Source of the DNA: Streptomyces sp. B21-105
Lineage (GTDB): Bacteria; Actinomycetota; Actinomycetes; Streptomycetales; Streptomycetaceae
Assembly (NCBI RefSeq): GCF_036898465.1
Contig: NZ_JARUMJ010000001.1
Coordinates: 806,001 to 870,000, forward strand
DNA: 64,000 bases
Reading direction: 5' to 3'
Position numbers and translations under genes: made by a program. Positions 46,701 to 64,000 of this stretch are shown here, piece by piece (the first letter of the stretch is position 1; the number at the start of each line of letters is the position of its first letter). The notes under the pieces were generated by a model. It was given only the letters and a program-made list of their open reading frames with translations. It searched no databases and had not been told where the DNA came from.

Positions 46701-47835
46701 CGAGGACGCGTCCCGCGAGGAGGACCGCCGCCTCGCCGCCGACGACCGGTGGCGGCTCGTCCTGGGGCGGCGCGCCGACCGGCTGCCCGCGTCCGCCCGC
46801 CCGTTGGCGACGGCCCTGGACGAGCTGTACGGCAGCGGACGCGGTGAGGGCAGCAGAGGGGATCTGACAGGCCCGGGGACCGGCGGCGGGCGGGAGGCGC
46901 CGTATCCCGGGGCGCGGGAGTGGTCGCAGGAGCTGGCCGCGCTGTTCGGACCGGGCATCCGGGAGGAGGTGCTGGCGGCGGCCGCGTCGGCGGGCCGCAA
47001 GGACGTCCTCGCGGAGCTGGACGCGGACAGCGTGCGCCCGTCGGTGGAACTCCTGCACACGGTGCTGCGGCATGCAGGAGGGCTTCCCGAGGCCCGGCTC
47101 GCCGCGCTGCGCCCGCTTGTGCGACGGCTCGTCGAGGAGCTGACCCGGGAGTTGGCGACACGACTGCGTCCCGCACTGCACGGTACGGCCCTGCCGCGCC
47201 CGAGCCGACGGCCCGGCGGCGGCCTCGACCTGCCGCGCACCCTGCGCGCCAACCTGACGACCGCACGGCGCGGCCCGGACGGCGTCGTGCGGGTCGTCCC
47301 CGAGCGCCCGGTGTTCCGCAGTCGGGGGCGGCGGGCCGCGGACTGGCGGCTGATCCTGGTCACGGACGTGTCGGGGTCCATGGAGGCTTCCACGGTGTGG
47401 GCCGCGCTGACGGCGTCGGTGCTGGCCGGGGTGCCGACCCTGGCGACGCACTTCCTGGCGTTCTCCACGGAGGTCATCGACCTCACCGGCCACGTCGAGG
47501 ACCCGCTGTCGCTGCTGCTGGAGGTCAGTGTGGGCGGCGGCACGCACATCGCGGCGGGTCTGCGGCAGGCCCGCGAACTCGTCACGGTGCCGTCCCGGAC
47601 CCTGGTCGTGGTCGTCAGCGACTTCGAGGAGGGCTATCCGCTCGGCGGGCTGCTCGCCGAGGTGCGGACGCTCGTCGGCTCGGGCTGCCATGTGCTGGGC
47701 TGCGCGAGCCTCGACGACACGGGCCGACCGCGTTACTCCACCGGCGTCGCCGGACAGCTCGTCGCCGCGGGCATGCCCGTCGCCGCCCTCAGTCCGCTCG
47801 AACTCGCCCGTTGGGTAGGGGAGAAGATCGCATGA
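43765..47835 (+). CDS. DUF5682-VWA fusion protein (YehM-YehP-like)
   Basis: A 1356-residue protein joining two parts that are separate genes in E. coli. Residues about 62-860 are DUF5682 (start LIGVRHHAPSLAAAVPALL, then VLVELPAEMQEWLGWLGHE, FADFSPELAAVRWAARHGVP). Residues about 1190-1356 are a von Willebrand A domain with an intact metal-binding MIDAS: LVTDVSGSME (DxSxS), GGGTHIA (Thr) and VVVSDFEEGY (Asp). Between residues 302 and 386 five copies of a 17-residue hydrophilic repeat interrupt DUF5682, and an Ala/Pro-rich linker lies near 960-985. The N-terminus is also repetitive (LRDTAGLPD twice). GTG 43765 has GGAGGG upstream. The VWA part is the expected partner of the MoxR ATPase. Confidence 0.82.
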   Translation: MSLHPSPDLPDSPAAEGPADLPDRTGLRDTAGLPDRACLRDTAGLPDLPGTFGFPGPPASVSGFRSPGEALVVLTDPAAPCLIGVRHHAPSLAAAVPALLDEARPEVVLVELPAEMQEWLGWLGHEETRAPVALAAAPGDGRGGAGPAFYPFADFSPELAAVRWAARHGVPLIACDLPLADRAWGEGRGGAEQGEAALGLTRALRAGLTGRPGDDLWDRLVEAAAPGSSPEALRRAALLTGWALREEAAAGGGVPELDLRRERWMRSRIAEATAHGERAAVVVGAFHAPALTGAALADQDENTDRQTEVRRTGAERRGSTDRHTEERQAGAHQGGNTDRHTEERQAGAAQGESTDRHTQDRQAGAERGDSTDRQTQEPQAGAERGGMPAEVRRAGAGKGSASPSTDGGPVGDTAGRGAAWVTSLIPYAYTLLDERSGYPAGIRDPQWQETVLRAAGDPAALEEALVRAAVRICVELRELGHPSGPADAREISRLASDLARLRGLPAPGRGELVEAVQTVLAQGEPYGRGRAVARAMERVLVGSRTGRPAPDAPRCGLAPAVEGETAALGLPGPQDSAGAARDLRLDPLRSDLDRRRELLLRRLTVCGVPYGEAKEVVGAGSAQALTSRWEVRWTPATAAMLTAAGVRGVTAAQAAEGVLRERLRTERDEGGPTAAQILQGLGEAAECGLPVLADERLDDVAEVLPQVGTLPELLAALALSDRLRSGHVPGLGVDEGRTARAAAVTELLTSAAVRQVDGLTGSENPADAHALLELAHRADLLGGVRLTDALARLAADGSPLMRGAAGAVRVLLGQEDARAFGDRVASWVDGAVDPDSRSALTARLSGLLTAAGPLLEAAEPALTPLLDRVAALPDREFLDRLPALRGGFETLSPAARDRLLASVEERLGVRRVGDTRGVDPVALAVWADADLAARDVLRTLCLLPPSGAGGRMSPAPEAASAPAPTAVPPAIPASVAVAAEDASREEDRRLAADDRWRLVLGRRADRLPASARPLATALDELYGSGRGEGSRGDLTGPGTGGGREAPYPGAREWSQELAALFGPGIREEVLAAAASAGRKDVLAELDADSVRPSVELLHTVLRHAGGLPEARLAALRPLVRRLVEELTRELATRLRPALHGTALPRPSRRPGGGLDLPRTLRANLTTARRGPDGVVRVVPERPVFRSRGRRAADWRLILVTDVSGSMEASTVWAALTASVLAGVPTLATHFLAFSTEVIDLTGHVEDPLSLLLEVSVGGGTHIAAGLRQARELVTVPSRTLVVVVSDFEEGYPLGGLLAEVRTLVGSGCHVLGCASLDDTGRPRYSTGVAGQLVAAGMPVAALSPLELARWVGEKIA
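44668..44922 (+). repeat. five in-frame 51-base tandem repeats (17 residues each) in the DUF5682-VWA gene
   Basis: Five contiguous units encode variants of STDRHTEERQAGAHQGG; the core TDR-T and the AGA/TGA positions are kept in all. Units differ mainly in the E/Q/R positions. The stretch is hydrophilic and probably disordered. It sits inside the DUF5682 region and is likely to vary in copy number between strains. Confidence 0.92.
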
Positions 47836-49742
47836 GCCCGGACCTGTTGCCTCCGGTCGCCCCGTCCGTCACCGCCGACCTGGTCGAGGCGCTGTCACCG
47901 AGGCTGCGCAAGCGTCTGGACGCCGGCGTCGCCAAGCTGGCGGCCCGTCCGGTCGTCCGTGACGGGGACACCGTACGGATCGCCGTCGACGACGGCACCG
48001 ACCTCGAACTGCACGCCCCGCACGGCGTGGTGACCACCACGGACGGGATCCGCTGCGGTTGTCTGCTGGCGCCCGACTGTCTGCACCGCGCGGCGGCCGC
48101 CTCCGCCGCGCCGGTCGCGCAGGACGCCCCGAGGGCCCCGGCCGCGGACCCCGTCCCGGCCGGGCAGCATCCCGAGTCGGCACGAGAGGGCGGGCTCGGA
48201 CGAGGGCGGTCGCCGCGGCCGGACACGGCGGCCGGGACCACCACCCCCGACGCGCTCCCCACCCCCTACGCGCCCGCCGCCACCGATGCGGCCTCCGCCC
48301 CCGATGGGTCCTCCGGCTCCGATGCGCCCGCCGTCCGCGACGCGCGCACCGCCGATCTGCCCTTCCCCGATCAACTCACCGCCGCACAAGCCGTGTTCGA
48401 CGCGGCGGCCGCCGTGCTCGACGCCGGGACGGACGGCTCCGGCGCGGTGCTCCAGGCGGCGCTGCTGCGGGCCGCGCACACCGCGCGCCTCGCGGGACTG
48501 CCCCGGGCCGCCGCAGCGGCGGTCTCCGTGGTCACCGGGGTGCGCGCGGCCCGTTGCGCCGACCCGGCCTACCGGCTGCCCGAGCTGGCGGACGCGCTCC
48601 GGGAGGTCCTCGCCGTGGCGCACCGTCTGCCGTCCGCGAGCGGCCCGGCGCTGGCCGAACTGCGGGGAACGGTACGGCAGCCGTACACCCCGGACGGTTC
48701 GCTGCGCCTGTACGGGGTCTTCTCAGAGCCCGTGCTGACGACGACCGGTCACGCGGGCGCCGTCACCTGGACCGCCGACGCCGGCGGCCGCCTGTACACG
48801 GTCTCCGACGTGGCTCCTGGCGGGCCCGGCCGGGCGACCGGCGCCGCCGACCGGACCGTGCGGCTCGGCGACACCGCGCTGACCCACCGTGAGCTGGCGC
48901 GCGCCGGCCTCGCGGTGTCCGGCGCGACCGTCTCCCCGACCGGCCGGCTCGGTGCGGGGGCCCGCGTGCGGGCGGTGCGCGCCTCCGGCGCCGACTGGAG
49001 CGCGGAACCGCTCGACCGACTGTGGACGGTCCCCGTCGCCGAGCAGGTCGCCGACTCCCTGGCCGGTGGCCGTGACCTGCTGTTCCTCACCGTGACCCTC
49101 GCGGGCGCGGTCCGGGAGGCGACGGGCGACTGTCTGCTGGCCGACTGCGAGGGGCGTGCCCTGCGGCTCGTCGCGGCCCACGACCACCCTGCCCTGCCCT
49201 ACCGCGACAATCTCCGGCTGCTGGCCGCCGCCCGCGGCAGCCGCCTGCGGATCGTCGCCCGGCTCACCCCGGGGCCGCTCCCCCGCGCGCTGCTGCTCGC
49301 CGCCGAACACCCGAGCCGGCCCGACGCCCGGGTGGACCTGGGCCTGGACCGGCTCCGGCACGCCGATCTGCCGCCTGTGACGGCGGTCCCCGCCCCGGCC
49401 GCCGTACCCGTGGCGGACGAGGCTCCCCTGCACCTGCTGCGCCGGCGCGTGCACCAGACCGTGTCCGGGGGCCGCCGGGTGCTGGCCTTCCCTGGCGGCG
49501 GGACGGGGGACGGGTCGCGGCTGCGCCGTGCGGGTCTCGGTACCGCGGGCGACCTTCTGGACGAACTGGGGGCCGGCGCCGCGGACCGCTCCCGCGACGC
49601 CTTCGGCCGGCTGCTGCCCGCGGACACGGGCCGCTTCGCCCGCGCGTGGCTGGCCTCGGCCCTCTACACCGGCGAGGTCGAACGAGCACTGTGCGCGGCG
49701 GCGTGGGGTACCGAGAGGGGGGTGACCGCCCCGGCGTTTTAG
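47832..49742 (+). CDS. SWIM zinc-finger protein (YehQ-like)
   Basis: A 636-residue protein. The SWIM motif CxC-x5-CxH is seen at RCGCLLAPDCLHR (Cys75, Cys77, Cys83, His85), close to the N-terminus as in YehQ-type proteins; SWIM domains bind DNA or protein. A long Ala/Pro/Asp-rich disordered linker (about residues 90-180) separates it from a helical domain (LTAAQAVFDAAAAVLDAG) and a larger C-terminal part rich in beta structure (TGHAGAVTWTADAGGRLYTV, DLLFLTVTLAGAVREATGD). ATG 47832 overlaps the previous TGA as ATGA. It closes the operon; the next gene starts 72 bases later. Confidence 0.8.
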   Translation: MSPDLLPPVAPSVTADLVEALSPRLRKRLDAGVAKLAARPVVRDGDTVRIAVDDGTDLELHAPHGVVTTTDGIRCGCLLAPDCLHRAAAASAAPVAQDAPRAPAADPVPAGQHPESAREGGLGRGRSPRPDTAAGTTTPDALPTPYAPAATDAASAPDGSSGSDAPAVRDARTADLPFPDQLTAAQAVFDAAAAVLDAGTDGSGAVLQAALLRAAHTARLAGLPRAAAAAVSVVTGVRAARCADPAYRLPELADALREVLAVAHRLPSASGPALAELRGTVRQPYTPDGSLRLYGVFSEPVLTTTGHAGAVTWTADAGGRLYTVSDVAPGGPGRATGAADRTVRLGDTALTHRELARAGLAVSGATVSPTGRLGAGARVRAVRASGADWSAEPLDRLWTVPVAEQVADSLAGGRDLLFLTVTLAGAVREATGDCLLADCEGRALRLVAAHDHPALPYRDNLRLLAAARGSRLRIVARLTPGPLPRALLLAAEHPSRPDARVDLGLDRLRHADLPPVTAVPAPAAVPVADEAPLHLLRRRVHQTVSGGRRVLAFPGGGTGDGSRLRRAGLGTAGDLLDELGAGAADRSRDAFGRLLPADTGRFARAWLASALYTGEVERALCAAAWGTERGVTAPAF

Positions 49743-49813: not shown

Positions 49814-50353
49814 ATGAGCGACTCCCCCACCCCCACCCCGTCCCTCACCGGCGAGCGCGCCGATCTGCTGGCGGCACTGACCAAGAGCCGTCACTTCCTG
49901 CGCTTCACCACGCGTGACCTCACCGACGAGCAGGTCGGACAGCGGACCACGGTGAGCGAGCTGTGTCTCGGGGGCCTGGTCAAGCACGTCACCGCCGTCG
50001 AGCGGAACTGGGTCGGCTTCATCCTCGAAGGCCCGTCGGCGATGCCCGACTTCACGAAGATGACGAAGGACGACTGGGCCGCGCGAGCCGCCGAGTTCCG
50101 GATGCTGCCGGGCGAGACGCTGACCGGCGTGCTGAAGGAGTACGCCGAGGCGGCCTACCGCACGGACGAACTGCTCGCCACGCTGCCCGACCTGGACGCG
50201 GAGCAGCCGCTGCCGCCGGCCCCCTGGTTCGAGCCGGGCGCGCGACAGACGGCCCGCCGGGTCCTGCTGCACATCGTCGCCGAGACCGCCCAGCACGCCG
50301 GGCACGCGGACATCATCCGCGAGGCCATCGACGGGGCGAAGAGCATGGGCTGA
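49814..50353 (+). CDS. DinB/DUF664-family protein (mycothiol-S-transferase-like)
   Basis: A 179-residue four-helix DinB-fold protein. The three metal-binding His positions are visible as GGLVKHVTAVERNWVGFI, a middle position, and HIVAETAQHAGHADIIREAI (HxxxxxxQHAGHAD). DinB/DUF664 proteins in actinobacteria include metal-dependent transferases that use mycothiol, such as maleylpyruvate isomerase, but the substrate here is unknown. ATG 49814 has a weak site (GAGGA ten bases upstream). It lies 71 bases after the SWIM gene and may be read through from the operon. Confidence 0.8.
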   Translation: MSDSPTPTPSLTGERADLLAALTKSRHFLRFTTRDLTDEQVGQRTTVSELCLGGLVKHVTAVERNWVGFILEGPSAMPDFTKMTKDDWAARAAEFRMLPGETLTGVLKEYAEAAYRTDELLATLPDLDAEQPLPPAPWFEPGARQTARRVLLHIVAETAQHAGHADIIREAIDGAKSMG

Positions 50354-50490: not shown

Positions 50491-51951
50491 TCAGCGGCCC
50501 ATGCCGATGAGACCCGTCAAGTAGCGCCAGAGCGAGGAGCGTTGCCGGATCGCCGGGTCCGGCAGCGTCGGGTCCGGTGATGTCGGGTCCGGTAGGGCCG
50601 GGTCCGCCGCCGTCGGCTCGGACGGTTCCGCGTGCGGCACCGTGTCCGTGGCCGGGCTCGACTGCGGCCCCGGCGTCGCGGCGAGTTCGTACCGTACCGG
50701 CAGCGAGCGCAGGCCGCGCATGAACGGCGAGGAGCGCCACGGCAGTTGGTCGACGGGCAGGGCCAGTTCCAGGTGGGAGAACCGCTCGAACAGCCGGCCC
50801 ACGCCGACCGCCGCGACCGTCGAGGCGAGTTCGCGCGCCGGGCACTGGCGGCGGCCCGCGCCCCAGGCCAGGTGCGCCCGCGTGCTGACCGTGGTGCCGG
50901 GCTCCACATGACCGGCGAACAGCGGGTCGGCGTGCGCCGCCGCGGAGGAGACCCACACCGGGTCGCCAGCCCGGATGACCTGGTTGCCCAGCGGGGTGTC
51001 CCGGGCCGCGAACCGCGGCACGAAGTTGACCAGCGGCGGCTTGCGCATGACCACCCGGTTCATGCTCTCCCGGACCATTCCCGCGGACAGGCTTGCCCGG
51101 GCGCCGCCGCCCTCGCCGGAGATGACCTCGACCACCGTGTTGGAGATGAGGATCCCGACATGGTCGGAGGTCATGCCCAGCAGCATGAACAGCTCACGGG
51201 CCAGCTCGTCGAGCGACAGGTCGGGGTGCGCCGCCAGCAGGTACGAGGGGAAGTCCTCCCCCGGCGTCCGCAGCTTCACCGCCGCCAGTTCCGCGAGTGC
51301 CGCCAGCAGTCGGTCCAGGGCCGGTTCGGCGTCCGGTCCCGCGTCCAGAACCCGCCACATGTCCATGAGCGCGTCGTCGCCCTGGGACCCGGGGAACCCG
51401 AGCAGACGGCTCGCGACCATCAGCGGCAGCGGGCGGGCGAACTGGGCGGACAGATCCGCCAGGCCCGTGCCGCCGGCCTGGCCCACCAGAGTGATCAGCT
51501 CGTCGGCGTACGCGGTGACGGCCGTCTTCAGGCGCTTGGCCTGAGGGTGCCGCGGGTCCTGGAACGGCTTGAGCGCCGCGTCCCACGCCGTGCGCAGCGC
51601 CGGATAGCCGGGACCGCCCTGGATCAGCACGTGGTTGACCTCGAGGGACGGTCCGAGCGGCCAGTCCGCCGGCACCCTGCCCTCCGAGCGCGCCCGCCAG
51701 TTCTCCAGCCCCTTCGGCCACGCGGCGTCGTCCTGGAGCACCTCGAGCGACTCCCGGTAGCCGAGGACCAGCCAGGCGGGCACGCCCAGCAGGTCGACCG
51801 GCGCGACCGGGCCGTGACGCTGCCGCAACCGCTCGTACACGAGGGAGGGGCGTGTCTCGTAGTCCCGGGTCAGGAGCGGTTCGAGAGTCATCGTCTCCAA
51901 CCGCGCGCCGTCGAGGTCCACGGATCCGCCGTCGTCCACCTGCGATTCCAC
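50491..51951 (-). CDS. cytochrome P450 without a canonical ExxR motif
   Basis: A 486-residue P450. The haem-thiolate Cys lies in AHLAWGAGRRQCPARELA, a variant of FGxGxHxC. In helix I, MLLGMTSDHVGILISN replaces the usual AGxxT. The K-helix position reads MVRESMNRVVMRKPPLVNF, with Arg at +4 rather than +3 from Glu, so ExxR is not present in standard form; the streptomycete CYP157 family is a known precedent. A Pro/Asp-rich repeat (PDPTSPDPTLPDP) precedes a basic, hydrophobic end (SSLWRYLTGLIGMGR). Related P450s are often found in conservon operons, but no conservon genes are seen here. GTG 51951 has a purine-rich site upstream. It is divergent from the accD gene, and the 289 bases between show no clear operator. 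Confidence 0.82.
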   Translation of the reverse strand: MESQVDDGGSVDLDGARLETMTLEPLLTRDYETRPSLVYERLRQRHGPVAPVDLLGVPAWLVLGYRESLEVLQDDAAWPKGLENWRARSEGRVPADWPLGPSLEVNHVLIQGGPGYPALRTAWDAALKPFQDPRHPQAKRLKTAVTAYADELITLVGQAGGTGLADLSAQFARPLPLMVASRLLGFPGSQGDDALMDMWRVLDAGPDAEPALDRLLAALAELAAVKLRTPGEDFPSYLLAAHPDLSLDELARELFMLLGMTSDHVGILISNTVVEVISGEGGGARASLSAGMVRESMNRVVMRKPPLVNFVPRFAARDTPLGNQVIRAGDPVWVSSAAAHADPLFAGHVEPGTTVSTRAHLAWGAGRRQCPARELASTVAAVGVGRLFERFSHLELALPVDQLPWRSSPFMRGLRSLPVRYELAATPGPQSSPATDTVPHAEPSEPTAADPALPDPTSPDPTLPDPAIRQRSSLWRYLTGLIGMGR

Positions 51952-52240
51952 TGCTCTGCCGCCCCCTTGGCACTCCCCATACCGGCGCGTCGTCGATCGG
52001 CAGCCGGAACCGGGGGGACCCTATCCCAGGCGCCGGCCGCGGGGAACGGCCGGGGCTCGGACGGAACACCCGTCAGGAGCCCACGGACGGCGAGCGACCG
52101 AAGGCGCCGGATCGGCGATTGCTTGTCACGGCAGGACGAAGCCGCGCCCGCCGGCACTCATCTCACGCAAACGCGAGGGCGATCGCTGGGGGTCACCGCG
52201 GAGTCGCTGCCATATTCGAGAACCACTTTCGGAGGTGGCT

Positions 52241-53809
52241 GTGACGCGAGAGGCGACAACTCCCCAGGCGACCACGACCGGTTCGGCGGACGGCACCGCC
52301 GCGCGTATCGCGGACCTGGCATGCCGTCAGGAGCGGGCCGCGGTGGCGGTCCCACCGCGCAGACGCGGGGCGCTCGGCGCGCGGGAGCGGATCGAGCGGC
52401 TGCTGGACCAGGGGTCCTTCACCGAGACCGGCCTGTTCGTCCGGGCCCGGTCGACGGGGGACGGCGCCCGCCGGCCCGACGGCGACGGGGTGGTCACCGG
52501 GTACGGCACGGTCGACGGACGTTCCGTCTGTGTGTTCGCGCAGGACTCCACCGTATTCGGCGGCAGCATGGGCGAGGCCTTCGGCGAGAAGACGGTGGCC
52601 CTGATGGACCTCGCACTGAAGACCGGTTGTCCGGTCATCGGGCTCAACGACTCCGGGGGCGCCCGCATCCAGGAGGGCGTCGCCTCGCTCGCCCTCTACG
52701 CCGAGCTGGTGCGCCGCAACGTGAAGGCGTCGGGGGTCGTCCCGCAGATCTCGGTCGTCCTCGGCCCCTGCGCGGGCGGGGCCGCGTACTCGCCGGCCAT
52801 CACCGACTTCACCGTGATGGTGGAGGGCGTCTCGCACATGTTCGTCACCGGCCCCGACGTCATCGAGGCGGTCACCGGTGAGCGCACCACCGCCGAGGAG
52901 CTGGGCGGCGCACGGGCCAGCAACTCCGTCAACGGCAACGCCCACTTCCTCGCCGCCGACGACGAGGACGCCCTGGACATCGTCCGCGACCTGCTGTCGT
53001 ACCTGCCGTCCAACAACCTCACGCGGCCCCCGGAGTACGCTCCCGCGGCCCCTCCCGGCGGGGCGGGGCTCGACGAGGCGGTGCCCGACCGGACCGGTCA
53101 GGCCTACGACATGCGCGACATCCTGCGGGCCGTCGTCGACGACGGCGAACTGCTCGAGGTGCAGGAGTTGTTCGCGCCGAACATCGTCTGCGCGCTGGCG
53201 CGGCTCGAGGGCGCCAGCGTCGGCGTCGTCGCCAACCAGCCGCTGCACGCCGCCGGCGTCCTCGACATCGACGCCTCCGAGAAGGCGGCCCGGTTCGTGC
53301 GGTTCTGCGACGCGTTCGGCATTCCGCTGGTGACCTTCGCCGACGTCCCCGGCTATCTCTCCGGCGTCCACCAGGAACGGGCCGGCATCATCCGCCGCGG
53401 CGCCAAACTGCTGTACGCGTACGCCGAGGCGACGGTGCCGAAGGTCACGGTGGTGGTGCGCAAGGCGTACGGCGGCGGGTACGCGGTCATGGGCTCCAAG
53501 CACCTGGGCGCCGATCTCAACCTGGCCTGGCCCACGGCGCGCATCGCCGTCATGGGCGCGGAGGGCGCCGTCGGCGTGCTGCACCGGCGGGAACTGGCCG
53601 CCGCCGACGACCCAGAGGCGCTGCGGGCCCGTCTCGTCGCCGCGTACGAGTCCGTCCACGGCACCCCGTACCCCGCCGCCGAGCGCGGATACGTCGACGC
53701 CGTCATCCGTCCCCGGGACACGCGTGCCCAGCTGTGCCGCGCGCTGCGTGCGCTGCGCGGCAAACGCGCCCCGATGCCGGACCGCCGGCACGGGAACATC
53801 CCGCTCTGA
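52241..53809 (+). CDS. acyl-CoA carboxylase carboxyltransferase (beta) subunit, AccD4/PccB type
   Basis: A 522-residue biotin-dependent carboxyltransferase that moves CO2 from carboxybiotin to the alpha carbon of an acyl-CoA. The two crotonase-fold halves are clear: GLNDSGGARIQEGVASLALY and GPCAGGAAYSPAITDF in the first, TFADVPGYLSGVHQERAGII and KAYGGGYAVMGSKHLGADLN in the second. The residue that selects acyl length in PccB/AccB (Asp or Ile) is Ala415 here. No biotin-carrier alpha subunit is encoded nearby, so a shared one must serve. GTG 52241 has GGAGG five bases upstream. It is the first gene of the lipid cluster and would supply the carboxyacyl-CoA for the PKS. Confidence 0.88.
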   Translation: MTREATTPQATTTGSADGTAARIADLACRQERAAVAVPPRRRGALGARERIERLLDQGSFTETGLFVRARSTGDGARRPDGDGVVTGYGTVDGRSVCVFAQDSTVFGGSMGEAFGEKTVALMDLALKTGCPVIGLNDSGGARIQEGVASLALYAELVRRNVKASGVVPQISVVLGPCAGGAAYSPAITDFTVMVEGVSHMFVTGPDVIEAVTGERTTAEELGGARASNSVNGNAHFLAADDEDALDIVRDLLSYLPSNNLTRPPEYAPAAPPGGAGLDEAVPDRTGQAYDMRDILRAVVDDGELLEVQELFAPNIVCALARLEGASVGVVANQPLHAAGVLDIDASEKAARFVRFCDAFGIPLVTFADVPGYLSGVHQERAGIIRRGAKLLYAYAEATVPKVTVVVRKAYGGGYAVMGSKHLGADLNLAWPTARIAVMGAEGAVGVLHRRELAAADDPEALRARLVAAYESVHGTPYPAAERGYVDAVIRPRDTRAQLCRALRALRGKRAPMPDRRHGNIPL

Positions 53810-53896
53810 TCCGGCCCGACCCGCCGACCCGCGCCCCCTGACCCGCCGCCCCCGGCCCCCGGCCGAACCGTGACGTGACGTGAGGAGCCACGCCCG

Positions 53897-55665
<1,769 letters not shown>

Positions 55666-55669
<4 letters not shown>

Positions 55670-58600
55670 GGGCCGCCGACGAGGAGGCGCTGCGCCGCCT
55701 GATCACGGACCGGGTGACAGCATGGCAGGACGGGCTCACGAACGCCGTGCCTGCGGACGGGCATGCGGATGCGCCGACGGACCTGCCCATGGACGTACCC
55801 ATGGACCTGCCGCTGGCCGACCTCGGGATGTCCTCGCGGGACGCGGTCGTGCTGGCCGGGGAGCTGTCCCGGCTGACGGGCCGTGAGCTGCCCGCGACGC
55901 TGCTCTGGGAGGCGCCCACCGTGGAGGCGCTCGTGGCGCACCTGTGCGCCACGGCGTCGCAGCACACCACAGCGCACCTCACCGCAGCACGGCACACCGC
56001 CGCGGAGCATGCTTCCGTGGCGCTCGCGGCCCCTGTCCCGGCGGGGCTCGGCGAGCCCGTCGCGGTCATCGGGGTGGGGTGCCGGCTGCCGGGCGGGGTG
56101 CGCGGGCCGGCCGGCTACTGGCGGCTGCTGTGCGAGGGCGTCGACGCGATCGGGCGGGTCCCCGCGGACCGCTGGCGCGACTTCGCCGCGTTCCCGCCGG
56201 ACGACGCTCCGACGCACGGCGGCTACCTGGACGACGTGGCCGGATTCGACGCCGACTTCTTCCGCGTCACCCCGCGCGAGGCCGCGGTGATGGACCCGCA
56301 GCAGCGGATCCTGCTGGAGGTGGTCCGCGAGACGCTCGACCACGCCGCGGTGCCGGCCGCCGCCCTCGCCGGCACGGCCACCGGTGTCTTCGTCGGCGTC
56401 AGCGCCGCCGAGTACGGACAGCTCACCGGAGCCGAAGCGGCGGACGTCGATCCCTGGGCGCCGGCCGGCGCGGCGCTCAGTGTGACGGCGGGACGGCTGG
56501 CCTACGCGCTGGACACACGCGGGCCGAGCATGGCCGTCGACACGGCATGCTCGTCCTCCCTGGTCGCCCTGCACCACGCGTGCGTCAGCCTGCGCACCGG
56601 CGAGAGCGACACGGCGATCGCCGCCGGGGTCAACCTGCTGCTGTCGCCCGTCGTCGGCGTCGCGTTCGGACAGGCGGGCGCCCTCGCGCCGGACGGGCGC
56701 TGCAAGCCGTTCTCGGCGGCGGCCGACGGCATCGGCCGCGGCGAAGGCTGCGCGGCCGTGCTCCTGAAGCGGCTCTCCGACGCCGAGCGGGACGGCGACC
56801 GCGTCCTCGCCGTCGTGCGGGCCACCGCCGTCAACTCCGACGGCCGCTCCAACGGGCTGCTGGCCCCCAATCCCGCAGCACAGCAAGCCCTGTTGGCGAC
56901 CGCGTACGGGAAGGCGGGGCTGGTCGCGGCGCACGTCGACTACGTCGAGGCGCACGGCACGGGCACTCCGCTCGGCGACCCGATCGAGGCGGGCGCGCTG
57001 GACGCTGTGCTGGGGGCGGGCCGCGACCCCGAACAGCCGCTGCTGCTCGGCTCGGTCAAGGGCAATCTCGGCCATCTGGAGGCCGCGGCGGGCCTCGCCG
57101 GGCTGGTGAAGACGGTCCTCGCCCTCCACCACGACCTCATCCCGCCCTCCCTGCACTGCGCGCATGGAAGCGCCGTGGGCGAGGCGCGGCTGCGGGTGGT
57201 GACCGAGCCCGAGCCCTGGCCCCGCTACGGCGGCACGGCCACCGCCGGCGTCTCGGGATTCGGCTTCAGCGGCGCCAACGCCCATGCGGTGCTGGAGGAA
57301 TGGCGGCCCGACGTCCTCCCGCGGCCGGTCGAGGAGCCGGCCGCCCGGCTGCATCTGCTGTCCGACGTCGACGCCGAGCGGGTCAGGGACACCGCGGGCC
57401 GGCTGGCCGCGTGGCTCCGCGCACCCGAGGGGAGGGCGGCCCGCCCGGCGGACGTGGCGCGCACGCTCGCCGGACGCACCGGCCGCGGACCCGTGCGCGC
57501 CGCTGTCGTCGCCCACGACGGGGACGAACTGGCCGACGCCATGGACGCGTTGGCGCAAGGCCGCCCGCATCCGCGCGCGGTGACCGGTGACCGTGATCTC
57601 GTGGGACGCGGCCCGGTGTGGGTGTTCTCCGGATACGGCAGCCAGTGGCCCGGCATGGGACGCCGGCTGCTGGCCGAGGAACCGGTGTTCGCCGCCGCCG
57701 TGGAGAAACTCGACGCGCAACTCGCCGGCGAATGCGGGTTCTCCCTGCACGACCGGCTGACCTGCGAAGACCCCCTGGACTGCCTGGAAATCGCCCAGCC
57801 CGTGCTGTTCGGGGTGCAGGTGGCGCTCGCCGAGGCGTGGCGCGCGTACGGGGTGGAACCGGCGGCCGTGATCGGCCACTCGATGGGCGAGGTGGCCGCC
57901 GCCGTCTGCGCGGGCGCGCTGGAAGTGCCGGAGGCCGCCAGGGTGATCGCCGTACGGGCCCGGCTGCTGAGCGGGCTGCGGGGCGGCGCGATGGCCGTGG
58001 TCGAGGTGGACGACGGCGAACTCACCGCTCTGCGACGGGACTTCCCCGGCGTCCAGGTCGCCGTCCACTCCTCGCCCCGGCAGAAGGTCGTCACCGGGGA
58101 CGAGTCGGCGGTCGCCGGGCTGGTACGCCGGCTGGAGGCGGAGGGACGCGCCGCGCGGGCCATGCGAGTGGCCGGCGCCGGGCACTCGCCCCAGGTCGAG
58201 CCGCTGCTGCCGGAGCTGACGGGCGCCCTGGCCGAGGTCCGGGGGCGGCGTCCGCAGGTGCCGGTCTACTCCACCGTCCTCGACGACCCGCGCGGCGACT
58301 GCGCGTTCGACGCCGCCCACTGGTCCGCCAACCTGCGCCGACCGGTGCGTCTGGACCGGGCCCTCGCGGCTGCGGCGGCCGACGGCCACACCGCGTTCGT
58401 CGAGATCTCACCGCATCCGGTCCTGACGGTGCCCATCGCCGACACCGTGCCCGGCGCCCTCGCCGTGGGCTCCCTGCGCCGCGACGCGGACGGCGGTGCC
58501 GCGTTCCTCACGCAGGTGGGCGCCCTGTACGCCGCGGGACTGCCGCTGCCGGCGTCGGCCGGCCGCGTCGTGGACGTGCCCGCGCCGCGCTGGCGGCACA

Positions 58601-59937
58601 CCCGGCACTGGTGGACGGACGGCCGTCCGCGCAGCCCGGGACAGGCTGGGAGCGGCCTGGCGGGGCACGCCCCTTTCGTCGCGTGGGCCGGCCCACAGGC
58701 ACGGGCTGCCGCTTCCGAGGCCGGGGAGGCGGACCCGGTCGGGCACGCGGACCGGGTCGGGCGGGCAGCAGCCGTCACGGAGTCCGACGGGGCCGCCTCC
58801 GTCGCCGCCCGTCTCGGCCGTCACATCGCGGACGTCACAGGTCATCCGCCGGCCCGGATCACGCCCGCCACCGCGCTGGCCGACCTCGGGTTGGACTCGC
58901 TGATGGCCGTCCGCATCCGCACCGCCGTGGAGCGCGAGTTCGGGATCGCGCTGCCGCTGCGCGACCTGCTCGGCGCGGCCACGGTCGCCGAAGCGGCCGA
59001 ACGCGTCCGACAGGCCCTGCCCACCTCGGAGGACGGCCCTTCACAGGACGGCCTCTCGGAGGACAGGCCCTCGCAGGACGGCCTCTCAAAGGACGGTCCC
59101 TCGCCGCAGCACCTCCTGCGCCTCCTGCGCCCCGGCGGCGCGCGTCCGCCGCTGTTCCTCTTCCACGCGGCCGGGGGCGCCTCCGACGTCTACCGCACCC
59201 TCGCCGAACGGCTGGGGGACGTCCGCCCCGTGCTGGGTGTGGAACGGCTGGAGGAGGCCGGCACCGTGCCGGAGAAGGCGCGCCGCTATGCCGAAGCAAT
59301 CACCGTCGCCCGTCCCGACGGCCCCCTGCTGCTGGGCGGCTGGTCCTTCGGCGGCTTCCTCGCCCAGGAGACGGCGCGGCTGCTCACGGACGCCGGACGG
59401 GCCGTGGAACTGGTCGTGCTCATCGACTCGGTGCGCCCGCTGCTCCCCCCGCCGGGTCCTGCCCGGGCCGACCGCGTCCGCGCGCACTTCGCGGGGTTCG
59501 CCCAGCACGTCGCGGACGTCTACGGGGTCCGTCTGCGGCTGCCCTACGACGAGCTCGCGGCGACGGACGACGACCGTGAGCGCATCGACCTCGTCCTGCG
59601 GTCCCTTCGCGCCGCCGCCGACGTACCGGCCGCCGCGCTGGAGCACCAGCGGGCCTCCTATCTGGACCTGCGGATCGGCGAGGCCCACCGCCCCGGCCGG
59701 TACGACGGTCGCGTGGTCCTGTACCGGGCCGGCGAACCGGCTCCGCACACCGTGCGCGACCCGGCCTACGAACGCGACGACGAAGCCCTCGGCTGGGACG
59801 CCGTGTGCCCGGATCTGACAGTGGTGCCGGTCCCGGGGCACCACCTGTCGCTGCTCGACCCCCCGCACGTCGACGAGATCGCCGCCCACCTGCGGCAGCT
59901 GCTCGACGCGTCGGGCGGAACCGCCGAACCGCACTGA
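55666..59937 (+). CDS. Pks13-like condensing polyketide synthase, ACP-KS-AT-ACP-TE
   Basis: A 1423-residue single-module type I PKS. Domains in order: N-terminal ACP (DLGMSSRDAVVLAGELSRL, likely pantetheine Ser57), KS (residues 130-550; Cys295 in DTACSSS, His430 in EAHGTG, His470 in KGNLGH), AT (650-960; Ser739 in GHSMGE), second ACP (Ser1078 in DLGLDSLM) and thioesterase (1160-1420; Ser1227 in GGWSFGG, His in PGHHLSLL). No reductive domain is present, so the product is a beta-keto acyl chain. Only Pks13 of mycolate-producing actinobacteria is known to me with this order. The AT specificity motif is GAGH (837-840) instead of HAFH or YASH. A pentapeptide repeat links ACP2 and TE. Confidence 0.9.
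59026..59100 (+). repeat. five 15-base tandem repeats encoding S-x-D-x-x pentapeptides in the ACP-TE linker
   Basis: The units SEDGP, SQDGL, SEDRP, SQDGL and SKDGP (residues 1121-1145) form an acidic, flexible tether between the second ACP and the thioesterase of the PKS. Confidence 0.9.
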
Positions 59938-59946
59938 GGAGCCGCC

Positions 59947-60957
59947 ATGCCGCACCGCACCTCCGCACTGTCCCGACGCGCCGTCACCAAGGCCGCCGCC
60001 GCCACGGGGCTGGCCGCCCTGTTCGGCGCCCACACCACGACGACGGCCCACGCCACGACCACGTCCCACGCCACTGCGACTGCTCGAGCCACGGCGACTG
60101 GCCGGGCCGCCGCGACGGCCCGGGCCGCGGTCCGGCTGGGACCGCGCACCGTCGACATCTCCGTCTCCTCTCCGGCTCTGGGCCGCCGTGCGCCGCTGCG
60201 GCTGATCCTGCCCACCGGCTTCGACTCCCGGCCCGAGCGGACCTACCCCGTGCTGTATCTGCTGCACGGGGCCCACGACGACTACACGTCCTGGACCCGG
60301 GAGACGGACATCGAGGCCTTCACCGAGGGCCGCGACCTGATCGTCGCCATGCCCGACGCGGGCCCCACCGGCATCCCGTCCGCGTGGCGGGGCGGCCCCG
60401 ACTACGAGACCTTCCAGGTGCGGGAGGTCCCGGCACTGCTCGCCCGCGACTACCGCGCCTCCGGCGTGCGGGCCGTCGCCGGCGTCTCCACCGGCGGCTA
60501 CGGGGCGATGGCGCACGCCGCACGGCACCCGGGCGCGTTCGCCGCCGCGGCCTCCTACAGCGGCATCCTCGACACCACGGCCCCCGGGGTGCCGCCGCTC
60601 GTGGACGCCATCGTGGCCCGGGAGAACCTGCTCCCCCCGTCGCTGTGGGGCAACCCGATCCTCAACGCCCCGACCTGGCGCGACTTCAATCCGCGGGCCC
60701 GTGCGGCCGGACTGCGGGGCACTCCCCTGTACGTGTCGAGCGGCAGCGGGGTGGTCGGCGGCGCCGGCGACTGGCTGCCCGAGGCGCTGGAGAGCACGCT
60801 GTGGCCCTCCGCGCACGGCTTCACCGGCGCGCTCACGCTCCTCGGCATCGCCGTCACCACCCACTTCTACGCGGGAGGAGGACACAGCTGGACCTACTGG
60901 CGGCGCGAGTTCACCGCCTCCTGGCCGATGCTCGCCGGTGCGCTGGGGGCGAGGTGA
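59947..60957 (+). CDS. Tat-exported antigen-85-like esterase
   Basis: A 336-residue alpha/beta-hydrolase of the esterase D/antigen 85 family. The N-terminus has a twin-arginine signal (LSRRAVTKAAAATGLAALFG). A low-complexity Ala/Thr/His/Arg stretch of about 35 residues follows (AHATTTSHATATARATATGR) before the domain starts at VDISVSSPALGRRAPLRLIL. The nucleophile is in AGVSTGGYGAMAHAARHPGA, and the catalytic His in GGGHSWTYWRREF. In mycobacteria, antigen 85 proteins transfer mycolates to trehalose and arabinogalactan. Here the gene follows the PKS by only nine bases, so it may transfer or release the cluster's lipid outside the cell. ATG 59947 has GAGGAG upstream. Confidence 0.85.
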   Translation: MPHRTSALSRRAVTKAAAATGLAALFGAHTTTTAHATTTSHATATARATATGRAAATARAAVRLGPRTVDISVSSPALGRRAPLRLILPTGFDSRPERTYPVLYLLHGAHDDYTSWTRETDIEAFTEGRDLIVAMPDAGPTGIPSAWRGGPDYETFQVREVPALLARDYRASGVRAVAGVSTGGYGAMAHAARHPGAFAAAASYSGILDTTAPGVPPLVDAIVARENLLPPSLWGNPILNAPTWRDFNPRARAAGLRGTPLYVSSGSGVVGGAGDWLPEALESTLWPSAHGFTGALTLLGIAVTTHFYAGGGHSWTYWRREFTASWPMLAGALGAR

Positions 60958-61079
60958 TGTCGGTGCAGCCGGGGTACGGAACGGAGCGCAGGGGTCGTTC
61001 GTCCTACCCAGGACGTCCCCCTCGCCCCACGGCCACCGGTGCCTGGGCGAGCCGTCTCCGGGTGAAAGGAGTGTCCGCC

Positions 61080-62297
61080 GTGGCCGTCCCCGCTCCGCGC
61101 GGCGAACCCGTCGATGCCCGAACCGCTCCGGTGCCACCGGACCTGGCCGAGCTGCTGCGCTCCGACCTCGAAGGCGTGGCCGACGAAGTGGAGGAAGAGG
61201 TCCGCAGACAGGTCCCCGAATACGGGGGGCCGGCCGCCGCAGTCCAGGGCCGCCACATCAGGTCCGGCGTGGTCCAGGCGCTCACCCTGTTCGTCGACCA
61301 CATCGCCGACCCCCGCGGCCAGGACGCCGCCATCGCCGCGACGTACTACGAACTCGGCCGCGGTGAAGCCCTCGAAGGGCGCAGCCTGGACGCGCTGCAG
61401 TCCGCGTTGCGCGTGGGCGGGCTGCACGCCTGGCGGCGGCTGAGCCGCACGGCTGAGGAGGTCGGGCTGGACTCGACGGCTGTGGCGGCCCTCGGCGAAC
61501 TGGCGTTCCGGACCGTGCACGAGGTCGCGGAGGCGGCCGCCGCCGGATACGCCGAGGCCCGGTCCCGCAGCGCCGACGAGTTGGAGCGGCGTCGCGGGCG
61601 CCTGCTCGACCTGCTGCTGGGCGACGGGCCGGTGTCCCCCGAGGCGGTACAGGAGCTGGCGCACGCCGCACGCTGGCGGGTGCCCGCGCAGGTCGCGGTC
61701 GTCGTGCTCGCCGCCGGCGCCGACCAGTACGCGCAGGACCCGCCGCCGGCGACGCCCGGGGCGCTGGCCGACATGGAGTCACGGCCGCCGCGGGTGCTGG
61801 TCCCGGACCCGGAGGGCGCCGGCCGGTTCGGCGGCCGGTCCTTCGTCCTCGGTCTGCGGGGACGTCCGGCGGCGATCGGTCCGACGGTCCCGGTCGCCGA
61901 GGCCGCGCACTCGCTGCACTGGGCGACGCGCGCGCTGGGCCTGATGGGCCGCGGGATCCTGCCCCGGCAGGGCGTGGTGCGCTGTACCGATCACCTGTCG
62001 ACGCTGCTCCTGCACAGTGACGAGCCGCTGCTCGGCCACCTGGCGGCGCGCGCCCTCGCGCCCCTCGACGCCGTCTCCGAGGGGCAGCGGGCCAGACTGG
62101 CCGAAACGCTGCTGGCCTGGCTGCTGAGCGGCAGCAACGTGCCCGACGTGGCCGCCCGGCTGCACATCCACCCGCAGACGGTCCGCTACCGGCTGCGTCA
62201 ACTGGAGAAGCTGTTCGGCGACGCCCTGCACGATCCCGGCGCCCGACTGGACCTGATCCTCGCCCTGCGCTCCACGGCTGAGCGCGACGGAGACTAA
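61080..62297 (+). CDS. PucR-type helix-turn-helix regulator
   Basis: A 405-residue regulator with a C-terminal PucR HTH: LLSGSNVPDVAARLHIHPQT, VRYRLRQLEKLFGDAL. The first 170 residues are helical (RHIRSGVVQALTLFVDHIAD, YELGRGEALEGRSLDALQSA), an N-terminal sensor region common in streptomycete members; the ligand is unknown. GTG 61080 is chosen because AAAGGAG precedes it by about eight bases and because the 41 codons upstream to the ATG at 60957 show weak third-position G/C bias, unlike coding DNA around it. It lies inside the lipid cluster and is the likeliest controller of it, though no operator is evident. Confidence 0.8.
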   Translation: MAVPAPRGEPVDARTAPVPPDLAELLRSDLEGVADEVEEEVRRQVPEYGGPAAAVQGRHIRSGVVQALTLFVDHIADPRGQDAAIAATYYELGRGEALEGRSLDALQSALRVGGLHAWRRLSRTAEEVGLDSTAVAALGELAFRTVHEVAEAAAAGYAEARSRSADELERRRGRLLDLLLGDGPVSPEAVQELAHAARWRVPAQVAVVVLAAGADQYAQDPPPATPGALADMESRPPRVLVPDPEGAGRFGGRSFVLGLRGRPAAIGPTVPVAEAAHSLHWATRALGLMGRGILPRQGVVRCTDHLSTLLLHSDEPLLGHLAARALAPLDAVSEGQRARLAETLLAWLLSGSNVPDVAARLHIHPQTVRYRLRQLEKLFGDALHDPGARLDLILALRSTAERDGD

Positions 62298-62422
62298 CTT
62301 CGCCACAATAAAACGCGGGTTTTCTGAATTCCCGTCCATAACACCCGTCCAGGATACGCGAATACCTTCGGGACTGTCCTTTTCCATTGGCGCCCAACGC
62401 GCCGCACCCTCAAAGGATCCCC

Positions 62423-63064
62423 ATGCGTATTCGCTTGTGCCTCGCCGCGCTCTCCCTCGCCGGCGGGGTCGGACTGACCGCTGCCCCGGCCTCCGCGGCC
62501 TCCGCCGCCGCCTGTTCGGACATCGACGTCGTAGCAGCTCGCGGTACCTTCGAACCGGGCACGCTCGGACTGATCGTCGGCGACCCGGTGTATTCCGCCC
62601 TGCAGAAGAAACTGACAGGAAAGAAACTGTCCAGCTACCGGGTGAACTATCCCGCCGACCTTTCTCTTACATCGGCCGCACAGGGAAACGCCGATCTGGT
62701 GAACCACGTCAAGGCGCAGGCCGCGGCCTGTCCCGCTCAGCGCTTCGTACTGGTCGGCTATTCGCAGGGGGCGAACGTCGTGGACAACTCCCTGGGCATC
62801 AGCAGCGCCGGCGCGGTGGTGGGCAGTCCCATCGTGGCGACCCTTCCCGCGGCCGTCGAACCGAAGGTCGCCGCGGTCCTGCTGTTCGGCAACCCGATCC
62901 GGGCGCTGGGCAAGAGCGTCACCGGGGTCTACCAGAGCCGCACCGTCGACTTCTGCGCCGACGGCGACCCCATCTGTGAGAACGGCGGGGACGACGTGCT
63001 GGCGCACCTCGGCTACACCTCCGACGCCGGCGCGGCGGCCACATTCGCCGCGAGCAGGATCTGA
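62423..63064 (+). CDS. secreted cutinase-family serine esterase
   Basis: A 213-residue secreted enzyme. The signal peptide covers about residues 1-28 (LCLAALSLAGGVGLTAAPAS). The cutinase fold is shown by CSDIDVVAARGTFEPGTLG, the nucleophile VLVGYSQGANVVDNS (GxSxG), and DFCADGDPICENGGDDVLAH, which holds the catalytic Asp and His and the Cys pair. Cutinases split cutin or other lipid esters; the mycobacterial member next to pks13 (Rv3802c) is a lipase/thioesterase needed for mycolate metabolism. ATG 62423 has AAAGGA six bases upstream. The 124-base gap before it is relatively A/T-rich and should hold its own promoter. Confidence 0.88.
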   Translation: MRIRLCLAALSLAGGVGLTAAPASAASAAACSDIDVVAARGTFEPGTLGLIVGDPVYSALQKKLTGKKLSSYRVNYPADLSLTSAAQGNADLVNHVKAQAAACPAQRFVLVGYSQGANVVDNSLGISSAGAVVGSPIVATLPAAVEPKVAAVLLFGNPIRALGKSVTGVYQSRTVDFCADGDPICENGGDDVLAHLGYTSDAGAAATFAASRI

Positions 63065-63236: not shown

Positions 63237-64000
63237 CTATCGCGGAGCGCGGGCGAACGCGGCAAGGCCGGCGGACACCGGCTCGGGCCGGCCGTCGTTC
63301 TGCACCGGCGCCGCGGTCAGCACGTCGAGATGCTGGTAGCCGGACGCCACCAAGGGATGCAGGTCGGCCGGGATGCGGCCGGCGAGCAGTCCGTCGCCCG
63401 CGAGCACTGTGAGCGTCGGATTGGCCGTCAGCCCGCCGGGATGGACGACGAGCCTCTTCACCTGAGGCGACGTGCCCAACTGGATGTCGGTGATGAGCTT
63501 GGTGGGGAAGTACTGCTCGGTGAAGTCCAGCGGCTGCTCCGCCAGACTGCGGGCCAGTTCCCGGATGTCGGTGACCTCCTTGCCCGCCCCGGTGAACGGC
63601 GTGCCGTCGGCCGACCGGTACCCGGGGTCGTCGGCGTCACCGACGCGGTCGTAGTTCCGCCAGGTGTACAGCGGCCCGTGAGATTGCCCGGGGATGGCCT
63701 TGTACTCGACGCCGAACAGCTGCGTCGGCTGCGCACTGCCGTTGGCGGCGGGGAACTCCTTGTCCACGACCGGCCCGCCGTCGAAGAAGCCCACACTGCT
63801 CTGCAGGAACGCCAGCGGCACGGACTGATCGTCCATCAGCGCCCCGAGCACGGCGGCGTTGGTGAGCCGGAAGTCCTTCACCGCGGGTGAGCCGGTGAGG
63901 AACGCCGCGGCGTCCTTCGAGAACAGGAACCGGTTGGTGGCCTCGATGTTGAGGCCAGAGGGCAGGTAGGCGGGCAGGTCCGCCTCGGCGTCCGGGTCGT
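63237..64000 (-). CDS. alpha/beta-hydrolase-like protein, C-terminal part (start lies outside the window)
   Basis: About 254 codons of a protein whose N-terminus lies past the window edge. The C-terminal pattern fits an alpha/beta-hydrolase: a strand followed by an acidic residue (LTVLAGDGLLAGRIP) and a late histidine (ASGYQHLDVLTAAPVQNDGR). The visible start of the region reads LPAYLPSGLNIEATNRFLFS, and LFGVEYKAIPGQSHGPLYTW is distinctive, but I do not recognise a named family. It is open to the edge; the GTG at 63881 is internal. It is convergent with the cutinase and could be a further lipid hydrolase. Confidence 0.6.
   Translation of the reverse strand, partial: DPDAEADLPAYLPSGLNIEATNRFLFSKDAAAFLTGSPAVKDFRLTNAAVLGALMDDQSVPLAFLQSSVGFFDGGPVVDKEFPAANGSAQPTQLFGVEYKAIPGQSHGPLYTWRNYDRVGDADDPGYRSADGTPFTGAGKEVTDIRELARSLAEQPLDFTEQYFPTKLITDIQLGTSPQVKRLVVHPGGLTANPTLTVLAGDGLLAGRIPADLHPLVASGYQHLDVLTAAPVQNDGRPEPVSAGLAAFARAPR

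What the first reader, a model, noticed from the sequence alone, without database searches (positions are those of the whole stretch)
52241..63064. A mycolate-condensation-type gene set (AccD, FAAL, Pks13-like PKS, antigen-85-like esterase, cutinase) in a streptomycete
Seen: five genes in 11 kb encode a carboxyltransferase, a FAAL with the NHYPQDVE signature, a PKS with ACP-KS-AT-ACP-TE order, a Tat-exported antigen-85-like esterase and a cutinase, with a PucR-type regulator among them. Known: in mycobacteria accD4-pks13-fadD32 lie beside the cutinase-like Rv3802c and the fbp (antigen 85) genes and perform the last condensation and transfer of mycolic acids. Inference: this streptomycete makes an alpha-alkyl beta-keto lipid by an analogous Claisen condensation and then exports or esterifies it. 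Streptomycetes are not known to make mycolates, so the product would be new, or a precursor-like relative.
Basis: partly seen in the sequence, partly recalled or inferred. Interest (0 to 1): 0.92.

Follow-up and report, generated by a model that had tools for sequence, protein, structure and literature searches.

The report
Mycolate-style lipid assembly genes in Streptomyces
Some Streptomyces carry a conserved block of genes that resembles the final steps of mycolic acid making in mycobacteria, and it likely joins two fatty chains into a branched lipid that an exported enzyme would then attach to something outside the cell.

Summary
Six same-strand genes at 52235-63064 encode an AccD-type carboxyltransferase, a FAAL, an ACP-KS-AT-ACP-TE synthase, an antigen-85-type esterase, a PucR-type regulator and a cutinase, in the same order in 20 of 21 near loci. 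The synthase shares with Pks13 its SSRDAV-type starter ACP, its AT motif and its thioesterase type; KS kinship to Pks13 is unresolved. The carboxylase lacks the Phe of short-chain carboxylases, as AccD4 does and as reported for MccB. Sister clusters in Amycolatopsis, Nonomuraea, Saccharopolyspora and others hold AccD or crotonyl-CoA carboxylase/reductase, never both (0 of 73 loci), and outside type A the GAGH/AAGH motif goes with having one of them (32 of 32, against 2 of 11 without). Best reading: Claisen condensation of a FAAL-loaded fatty acid with an alkylmalonyl extender, then acyl transfer outside the cell. It is not the mycolate pathway proper: Pks13, FadD32 and Culp6 model cut-offs fail, no ketoreductase was found beside it, and an Asp constant in the compared Fbp proteins is replaced. 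Chain lengths, acceptor and product are unknown.

The parts
52235..53809 (+). AccD-type acyl-CoA carboxyltransferase; Val159 where PccB has Phe161, Ala417 where PccB has Asp421/422 (a later GTG at 52343 is an alternative start)
53897..55669 (+). fatty acyl-AMP ligase (FAAL), predicted to load the starter acyl chain on the N-terminal ACP
55666..59937 (+). Pks13-like type I PKS, 1423 aa, ACP-KS-AT-ACP-TE
55777..56001 (+). PKS N-terminal ACP with LGMSSRDAV motif, of the type seen in Pks13
56053..57159 (+). PKS ketosynthase (Cys-His-His motifs intact)
57616..58530 (+). PKS acyltransferase with GAGH specificity motif
58813..59004 (+). PKS C-terminal ACP (LGLDSLMA)
59149..59892 (+). PKS thioesterase; best solved match is Pks13 TE
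59947..60957 (+). Ag85/mycoloyltransferase-type esterase, triad Ser181-Glu282-His313, Tat-like N-terminus
61131..62297 (+). PucR-type regulator
62387..63064 (+). cutinase, probably secreted (not of Culp6 type)
50491..51951 (-). P450-like protein, divergent; adjacent in only 2 of 21 near loci (L031, L032), so probably not part of the core

Best explanation
Six same-strand genes form a conserved Streptomyces cassette that likely joins two fatty acyl chains by a Pks13-style Claisen condensation and would pass the alpha-alkyl beta-keto acyl product to an exported antigen-85-type acyltransferase. Inferred steps: (1) the AccD, with housekeeping biotin subunits, carboxylates an acyl-CoA longer than C4 to an alkylmalonyl-CoA; (2) the AT loads this on the C-terminal ACP; (3) the FAAL loads a free fatty acid on the N-terminal SSRDAV ACP; (4) the KS condenses the two with loss of CO2; (5) the TE transfers the beta-keto acyl chain to a small alcohol or polyol, or frees it as an acid that would decay to a ketone; (6) the exported esterase moves the acyl chain to an acceptor outside; (7) the cutinase probably trims or recycles such esters, and the PucR-type protein controls the set. 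Shown by calls: gene content, order, domains, catalytic residues, specificity-position residues and co-conservation. Not shown: any enzyme activity, chain lengths, acceptor or product.
For: Architecture ACP-KS-AT-ACP-TE; best NCBIfam model mycolic_Pks13 (1158.5 bits, under its cut-off); best solved chains Pks13 (799 bits, MAS 643); TE best match Pks13 TE (135.8 bits, next family 77.2). N-ACP: Ser is followed by Arg in 70 of 70 A-D loci where the domain was aligned (3 more gave no hit) and in 14 of 14 Pks13, against 3 of 21 control ACP hits, 12 of which read DSL. AT motif: GAGH in 30 of 30 A, GAGH/AAGH in 10 of 11 B and 9 of 9 C, GAGH in 15 of 23 D, GAGH/GASH in 14 of 14 Pks13, 1 of 30 controls. 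AccD at the Phe161 site: Val in 22 of 22 A-type loci with the window, Gly 8 and Ser 1 of 9 AccD4, Phe in 5 of 5 other full-length AccDs of this genome; the 422 site is Ala in A and AccD4. Ray et al. report Phe161 in all such subunits known to act on C4 or less, and Gly161 and Ala423 in medium-chain MccB (passages of PMC5187497). AccD and crotonyl-CoA carboxylase/reductase, two routes to alkylmalonyl-CoA, alternate: 39 and 23 of 73 loci, both 0, neither 11. Outside A, loci with either enzyme have GAGH/AAGH in 32 of 32, those with neither in 2 of 11 (seen after the fact, no correction for phylogeny). Esterase: triad and fold of mycoloyltransferases, 140.8 bits to an Fbp profile against 35.2 for the next of the genome's PF00756 proteins. 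Linkage without selecting on the esterase: A 20 of 21, B 6 of 6, C 5 of 7, D 4 of 4.
Against: AccD whole sequence is nearest to propionyl-CoA-carboxylase-type subunits (697 bits; the chain labelled D4 500.6). The AT by whole sequence is nearest to PpsA (249.9) and MAS (242.1), with Pks13 AT at 184.2. KS and FAAL trees do not resolve kinship with Pks13/FadD32. One ordinary modular AT of the same genome also has GAGH; eight D loci have GGAH, VAGH or VASH. No relative of the MFS or MmpL proteins of B and D lies in any of 30 A loci. Of the two MmpL proteins of D-type loci scored against NCBIfam, only one fits the MmpL3 model best. The Asp of Fbp 'LLDG' (22 of 22) is His or Gln here, which speaks against a copy of the trehalose site. 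No ketoreductase was found in the locus. One FAAL hit fetched wide (L065) has neither this PKS nor the esterase.
Confidence: 0.65

Rival explanations
1. A short-branch lipid: the AccD makes methylmalonyl-CoA (or the AT takes it), so the product is an alpha-methyl beta-keto lipid, with esterase and cutinase acting as simple hydrolases.
For: AccD nearest to PccB-type subunits by whole sequence; AT nearest to PpsA/MAS ATs.
Against: Phe161 and Asp422 are both replaced in every A-type AccD aligned; GAGH instead of YASH/HAFH; AccD replaced by CCR in sister clusters and motif tied to the presence of either enzyme, although CCR could also supply ethylmalonyl-CoA.
Confidence: 0.2
2. A diffusible antibiotic or signal (for example a ketone or beta-lactone-like product) made by a one-module FAAL-PKS, with esterase and cutinase as tailoring or self-protection enzymes.
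For: Subgroups carry an MFS efflux-type protein (B 11 of 11) and glycosyltransferases (C 4 of 9, D 6 of 23) as antibiotic clusters do; in 12 of 13 chromosome-sized contigs of near relatives the FAAL lies within 2 Mb of a contig end, where Streptomyces keep many special-metabolite genes (recalled).
Against: The esterase is specifically of mycoloyltransferase type and is tied to the PKS across several families; some D loci hold an MmpL3-like transporter.
Confidence: 0.12
3. A true mycolic acid pathway with a mycomembrane-like layer in Streptomyces.
For: Gene-by-gene likeness to the mycolate condensation cluster.
Against: Pks13, FadD32 and Culp6 equivalog cut-offs not met; no ketoreductase in the PKS or among the nine scanned genes; Fbp Asp replaced.
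Confidence: 0.03

Closest known systems
Pks13 (mycolic condensase) with FadD32 and AccD4
   Same: ACP-KS-AT-ACP-TE order, SSRDAV-type N-ACP, GAGH/GASH AT motif, Pks13-type TE, FAAL and carboxylase partners
   Different: Fails the Pks13 equivalog cut-off; AT whole sequence closer to PpsA/MAS; AccD of PccB likeness; short AT-ACP stretch (AT match ends at residue 955, ACP2 match begins at 1050)
Antigen 85 / corynebacterial mycoloyltransferases (Fbp, Cmt, PS1)
   Same: Fold (Foldseek ranks 1-14 all of this kind), Ser-Glu-His triad and conserved Trp positions
   Different: 24-32% identity in the fold alignments; His or Gln for the Asp of the Fbp LLDG motif; acceptor unknown
MccB medium-chain acyl-CoA carboxylase of the stambomycin cluster, and the cryptic single-module Amycolatopsis cluster noted by Ray et al. 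2016 (PMC5187497, passages)
   Same: PccB-like beta subunit with Phe161 and the Asp replaced; Amycolatopsis loci here hold FAAL-PKS-AccD-esterase with Gly and Ala at these sites
   Different: Val rather than Gly at 161 in the window; in the passages seen there is no mention of Pks13 or antigen 85, and that their cluster is the D-type one is my inference
Culp6 (Rv3802c) cutinase-like protein
   Same: Cutinase family member beside a condensing PKS
   Different: 26.3 bits against a cut-off of 570; nearest solved protein is a carbohydrate esterase family 5 enzyme

Membership tests
Pks13 (NCBIfam NF040607) | ACP-KS-AT-ACP-TE order | tested here: met
Pks13 (NCBIfam NF040607) | score above equivalog cut-off 2100 | tested here: not met
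   1158.5 bits
Pks13 (NCBIfam NF040607) | Pks13-type thioesterase | tested here: met
   135.8 bits against 77.2 for the next family
Pks13 (NCBIfam NF040607) | KS in one clade with Pks13 KS | tested here: inconclusive
   same region of the tree, weak nodes
Pks13 (NCBIfam NF040607) | pseudo-dehydratase DH* after the AT (described in PMC11649247, passages) | tested here: inconclusive
   no Pfam DH match, AT-ACP2 gap of about 95 residues; this part was not modelled
Pks13 (NCBIfam NF040607) | condenses a 2-carboxyacyl chain with an acyl chain | not testable with these tools
   needs assay
FadD32 | score above equivalog cut-off 975 | tested here: not met
   499.9 bits; FAAL tree unresolved
AccD4 | no Phe at 161 and Ala at 422 | tested here: met
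   Val and Ala, (AccD4 itself has Gly in 8 and Ser in 1 of 9)
AccD4 | closest relative by whole sequence | tested here: not met
   PccB-type 697 bits, D4 chain 500.6; 62.7% to the own PccB-like protein, 47-53% to AccD4 of mycolate loci
Ag85/mycoloyltransferase | alpha/beta hydrolase with Ser-Glu-His triad | tested here: met
   S181, E282, H313
Ag85/mycoloyltransferase | closest solved structures are mycoloyltransferases | tested here: met
Ag85/mycoloyltransferase | Asp of LLDG present in all 22 Fbp-type sequences compared | tested here: not met
   His 21 of 21 in A with the window
Ag85/mycoloyltransferase | acyl transfer to trehalose or cell wall | not testable with these tools
   needs assay
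MccB medium-chain carboxylase | Gly161 and Ala423 | tested here: not met
   Ala met, Val instead of Gly
Culp6 | score above cut-off 570 | tested here: not met
   26.3 bits

The most novel reading that the evidence does not exclude
Mycolic acid condensation and transfer is one branch of a wider actinobacterial system: many actinomycetes without mycolates make mycolate-like alpha-alkyl beta-keto (types A, B) or beta-hydroxy (types C, D, with a ketoreductase in the synthase) lipids from a FAAL-loaded chain and an AccD- or CCR-made alkylmalonyl unit, and place them outside the cell with antigen-85-like transferases, in some with an MmpL3-like exporter.
Probability: 0.4. Interest if true: 0.9.

Novelty: new variant of a known kind. 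Interest (0 to 1): 0.78.

Why it matters
Mycolate condensation is usually treated as a mark of one order (recalled; the abstract of PMC13324839, seen in the listing, calls Pks13 conserved across Corynebacteriales). A conserved relative of the whole last step in Streptomyces, Amycolatopsis, Nonomuraea and others would point to an unknown class of envelope or secreted lipids, bear on where mycolic acids came from, and give safe laboratory models for Pks13- and Ag85-like enzymes.

Tried and rejected
Rejected: cutinase as Culp6. P450 as core member: adjacent in 2 of 21 near loci. AccD as AccD4 orthologue. Trehalose as the certain acceptor: the Fbp Asp is replaced (that this Asp touches trehalose is recalled). 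The first trees and the second TE tree had poor outgroups and are not used, nor is the esterase tree, which has no useful outgroup. The class scan with the Pks13 model scored only two candidates per genome and missed the window's own PKS, so its negatives say nothing about this family; it served to fetch 14 Pks13 genes and the four next-best hits (D-type, L081-L084, fetched wider as L106-L109). Its lower hits L085-L096 were used as controls and not fetched wide, so whether they have the esterase nearby is not known.

Rows left out: the A-list of 30 was chosen from loci not cut by contig ends; it leaves out L037, L185 and L190 (cut) and L188 (same place as L044). L033/L187 and L052/L198 are the same places and both are in the 73; without one of each 71 remain (AccD 38, CCR 22, both 0, neither 11). 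L053/L199 and L044/L188 are also the same places. Of the FAAL hits three weaker ones (second copies or distant) and G001 on a short contig were not fetched wide, and L065 was fetched but is of another kind. In the named-locus scan loci were picked by the esterase, so esterase presence there is no evidence; the tool kept 80 of 573 confirmed loci, and 40 of these 80 have a KS of this kind in the stretch; the rest, such as Fictibacillus, do not. 'Neither' loci may hide an enzyme outside the stretch (L064 and L222 are cut short).

Paper searches whose listed rows, judged by title and start of abstract, show no Streptomyces Pks13-like or antigen-85-like system: 25 of 98 listed; 25 of 27; 25 of 46; open-licence PMC papers only.
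Full report
What is there. Six same-strand genes lie at 52235-63064: AccD-type carboxyltransferase, FAAL, a 1423-residue PKS with ACP-KS-AT-ACP-TE, an esterase of PF00756, a PucR-type regulator and a cutinase. FAAL and PKS overlap by four bases; nine bases part PKS and esterase. The genome (9.2 Mb) belongs to a genus whose nearest PKS homologues, where the listing names a species, are Streptomyces (120 listed of 7,887). The active-site motifs of KS, AT, both ACPs and TE are present in the window's PKS and in most relatives.

How common and how conserved. In 199 genomes of the genus, 35 have a FAAL match at 1e-120 and 23 (the own one included) have one at 75% identity or more. Of the 21 such loci fetched wide besides the own, 20 keep AccD-FAAL-PKS-esterase-PucR-cutinase in order, and one (L037) ends at a contig edge near the end of the PKS. 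Two looser groups appear in the same search. B (six loci, PKS 51-53% identical) keeps FAAL-PKS-esterase in 6 of 6. C (seven loci) has in most a longer PKS and keeps the esterase within the stretch in 5 of 7; the one C-type PKS scanned has a KR domain, as have the two D-type ones; the one B-type has none. The search with the Pks13 model gave four D-type loci in other families, all four with the esterase. A scan with the esterase alignment gave 80 named loci, 40 of them with a KS of this kind in the stretch: besides Streptomyces in Saccharopolyspora, Amycolatopsis, Nonomuraea, Planomonospora, Actinacidiphila, Actinosynnema, Frankia, Crossiella and Kibdelosporangium. A cutinase of 63-66% identity recurs in three of these loci (L210, L239, L241), each with a PucR-type gene.

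Is the PKS Pks13-like? Whole length: best NCBIfam model mycolic_Pks13, 1158.5 bits, under the cut-off of 2100; best solved chains Pks13, 799 bits, then MAS 643 and DEBS 631. Thioesterase: Pks13 TE 135.8 bits, next family 77.2. N-terminal ACP: the phosphopantetheine Ser is followed by Arg (SSRDAV, TSRDAV and the like) in A 28 of 30 (2 without a hit), B 11 of 11, C 8 of 9 (1 without a hit), D 23 of 23 and Pks13 14 of 14. Of 21 control ACP hits 12 read DSL and 3 have Ser-Arg (mycobacterial L166 SSRDAV, own L173 DSRMAV, L086 GSRQLV). Against: by whole sequence the AT is nearest to PpsA (249.9) and MAS (242.1), with Pks13 at 184.2. In the trees (76 KS, 70 AT) A+B is firm (100/100), C joins with 99.2/100 in KS, and all lie outside the ordinary modular clade, but the node joining them with Pks13 is weak in KS (SH-aLRT/UFBoot 11.9/42; 48.6/71 with L166) and moderate in AT (68.5/88). 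FAAL kinship to FadD32 is unresolved.

Which extender? Four lines point to an extender larger than methylmalonyl. (1) The AT motif is GAGH in 30 of 30 A; GAGH or AAGH in 10 of 11 B (TAGH in L060) and 9 of 9 C; GAGH in 15 of 23 D, the rest being VAGH four, GGAH three and VASH one; GAGH or GASH in 14 of 14 Pks13; 30 control ATs have YASH, HAFH, VASH and the like, with one GAGH. YASH for methylmalonyl and HAFH for malonyl are stated in PMC6164871 (passages); a link of xAGH motifs with larger extenders is recalled. (2) The AccD has Val where PccB has Phe161, and Ala where PccB has Asp421/422, in 22 of 22 A-type loci including the window; AccD4 has Gly (8 of 9) or Ser (1), and Ala; the five other full-length AccDs of this genome that were aligned have Phe. 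In 19 named loci (L187 and L188 repeat places): Val 13, Gly 6, no Phe; Ala in 18 at the second site. Ray et al. (PMC5187497, passages only) report Phe161 in all such subunits known to act on acyl-CoA of four carbons or less, and Gly161 and Ala423 in the medium-chain enzyme MccB. (3) Where AccD is missing a crotonyl-CoA carboxylase/reductase is usually present, the other known route to alkylmalonyl-CoA: AccD 39, CCR 23, both 0, neither 11 of 73 loci (two duplicate pairs included). Fisher's test on the 43 loci outside A gives 0.0003. One B-type locus (S. fildesensis, L195) has an A-like AccD and no CCR. The CCR matched TIGR01751 above its cut-off in 4 of 4 proteins tested. The own genome has two CCR genes elsewhere. 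(4) Outside A, the 32 loci with either enzyme all have GAGH or AAGH, and of the 11 with neither only 2 do (Fisher 1e-7; in D alone 15 of 15 against 0 of 8). This was noticed on recounting, and no test here corrects for phylogeny.

Accessory genes in sister clusters. B has an MFS efflux-type protein in 11 of 11; GT genes occur in C 4 of 9 and D 6 of 23; MmpL-family genes in D 7 of 23. In Nonomuraea typhae (L203) one run of genes holds FAAL, an MmpL protein, MFS and GT beside PKS, CCR and esterase; its MmpL protein best fits the MmpL3 trehalose-monomycolate exporter model (453 bits, cut-off 1400 not met; generic MMPL model 186), whereas that of Kibdelosporangium (L239) fits the generic model better (452.6 against 83.0). 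No relatives of these MFS, GT or MmpL proteins are in the 30 A loci; other exporter families were not searched. The own genome has at least eight large MMPL proteins elsewhere.

Mechanism and limits. The best-supported reading is a one-step Claisen condensation of Pks13 kind, with a FAAL-loaded starter and an alkylmalonyl extender, release by a Pks13-type TE (Pks13's own TE releases onto polyols, preferably trehalose: PMC9210659, passages), and an acyl transfer outside the cell. Without a reductase the product would be a beta-keto ester or, if freed, a ketone; PMC2568869 (passages) describes such ketones when the mycobacterial reductase is lost. Not known: chain lengths, acceptor, stereochemistry, export route, expression and role.

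Novelty. The parts are of known kinds; the combination outside the mycolate makers, and the AccD/CCR alternation, were not seen in the listings of the paper searches named under Tried and rejected. Ray et al. noted a cryptic one-module Amycolatopsis cluster with an MccB homologue, which is probably one of the D-type loci seen here (inference).

Noticed in passing
window 36667-49742: Run of DUF4132, MoxR-type AAA_5, DUF5682 plus CoxE-like VWA genes and two large proteins without a Pfam match; looks like a MoxR-VWA system, unrelated to the lipid set.
   Followed up: no
window 63237-63998 (-), runs off the window: A gene convergent to the cutinase, found in 27 of 30 A-type loci (554 aa in L035), without a Pfam or PDB match.
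   Followed up: partly
window 50491-51951 (-): P450-like protein with only a partial Pfam match (32 bits), divergent from AccD; its family is in 6 of 30 A-type stretches.
   Followed up: partly
L166 (G276:C1:3040416-3048000): A second mycobacteria-type PKS, not Pks13, with an SSRDAV N-terminal ACP and a KS/AT placed near the Pks13 group.
   Followed up: no
L195, S. fildesensis: B-type PKS locus with an A-like AccD (73%) in place of the usual CCR, a natural swap of extender supply.
   Followed up: partly
L106, L107, L221, L222, L225, L239, L241, L251: The eight D-type loci with neither AccD nor CCR are exactly the eight D-type loci whose AT motif is not GAGH; they may use another extender.
   Followed up: partly
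L203, L204, L208, L212 (Nonomuraea): Protein of about 430 aa, perhaps secreted, between esterase and glycosyltransferase, in a family found in 6 D-type loci; one scanned has no Pfam match.
   Followed up: no
window 49814-50353: Mycothiol-S-transferase-type DinB protein upstream of the P450-like gene.
   Followed up: no
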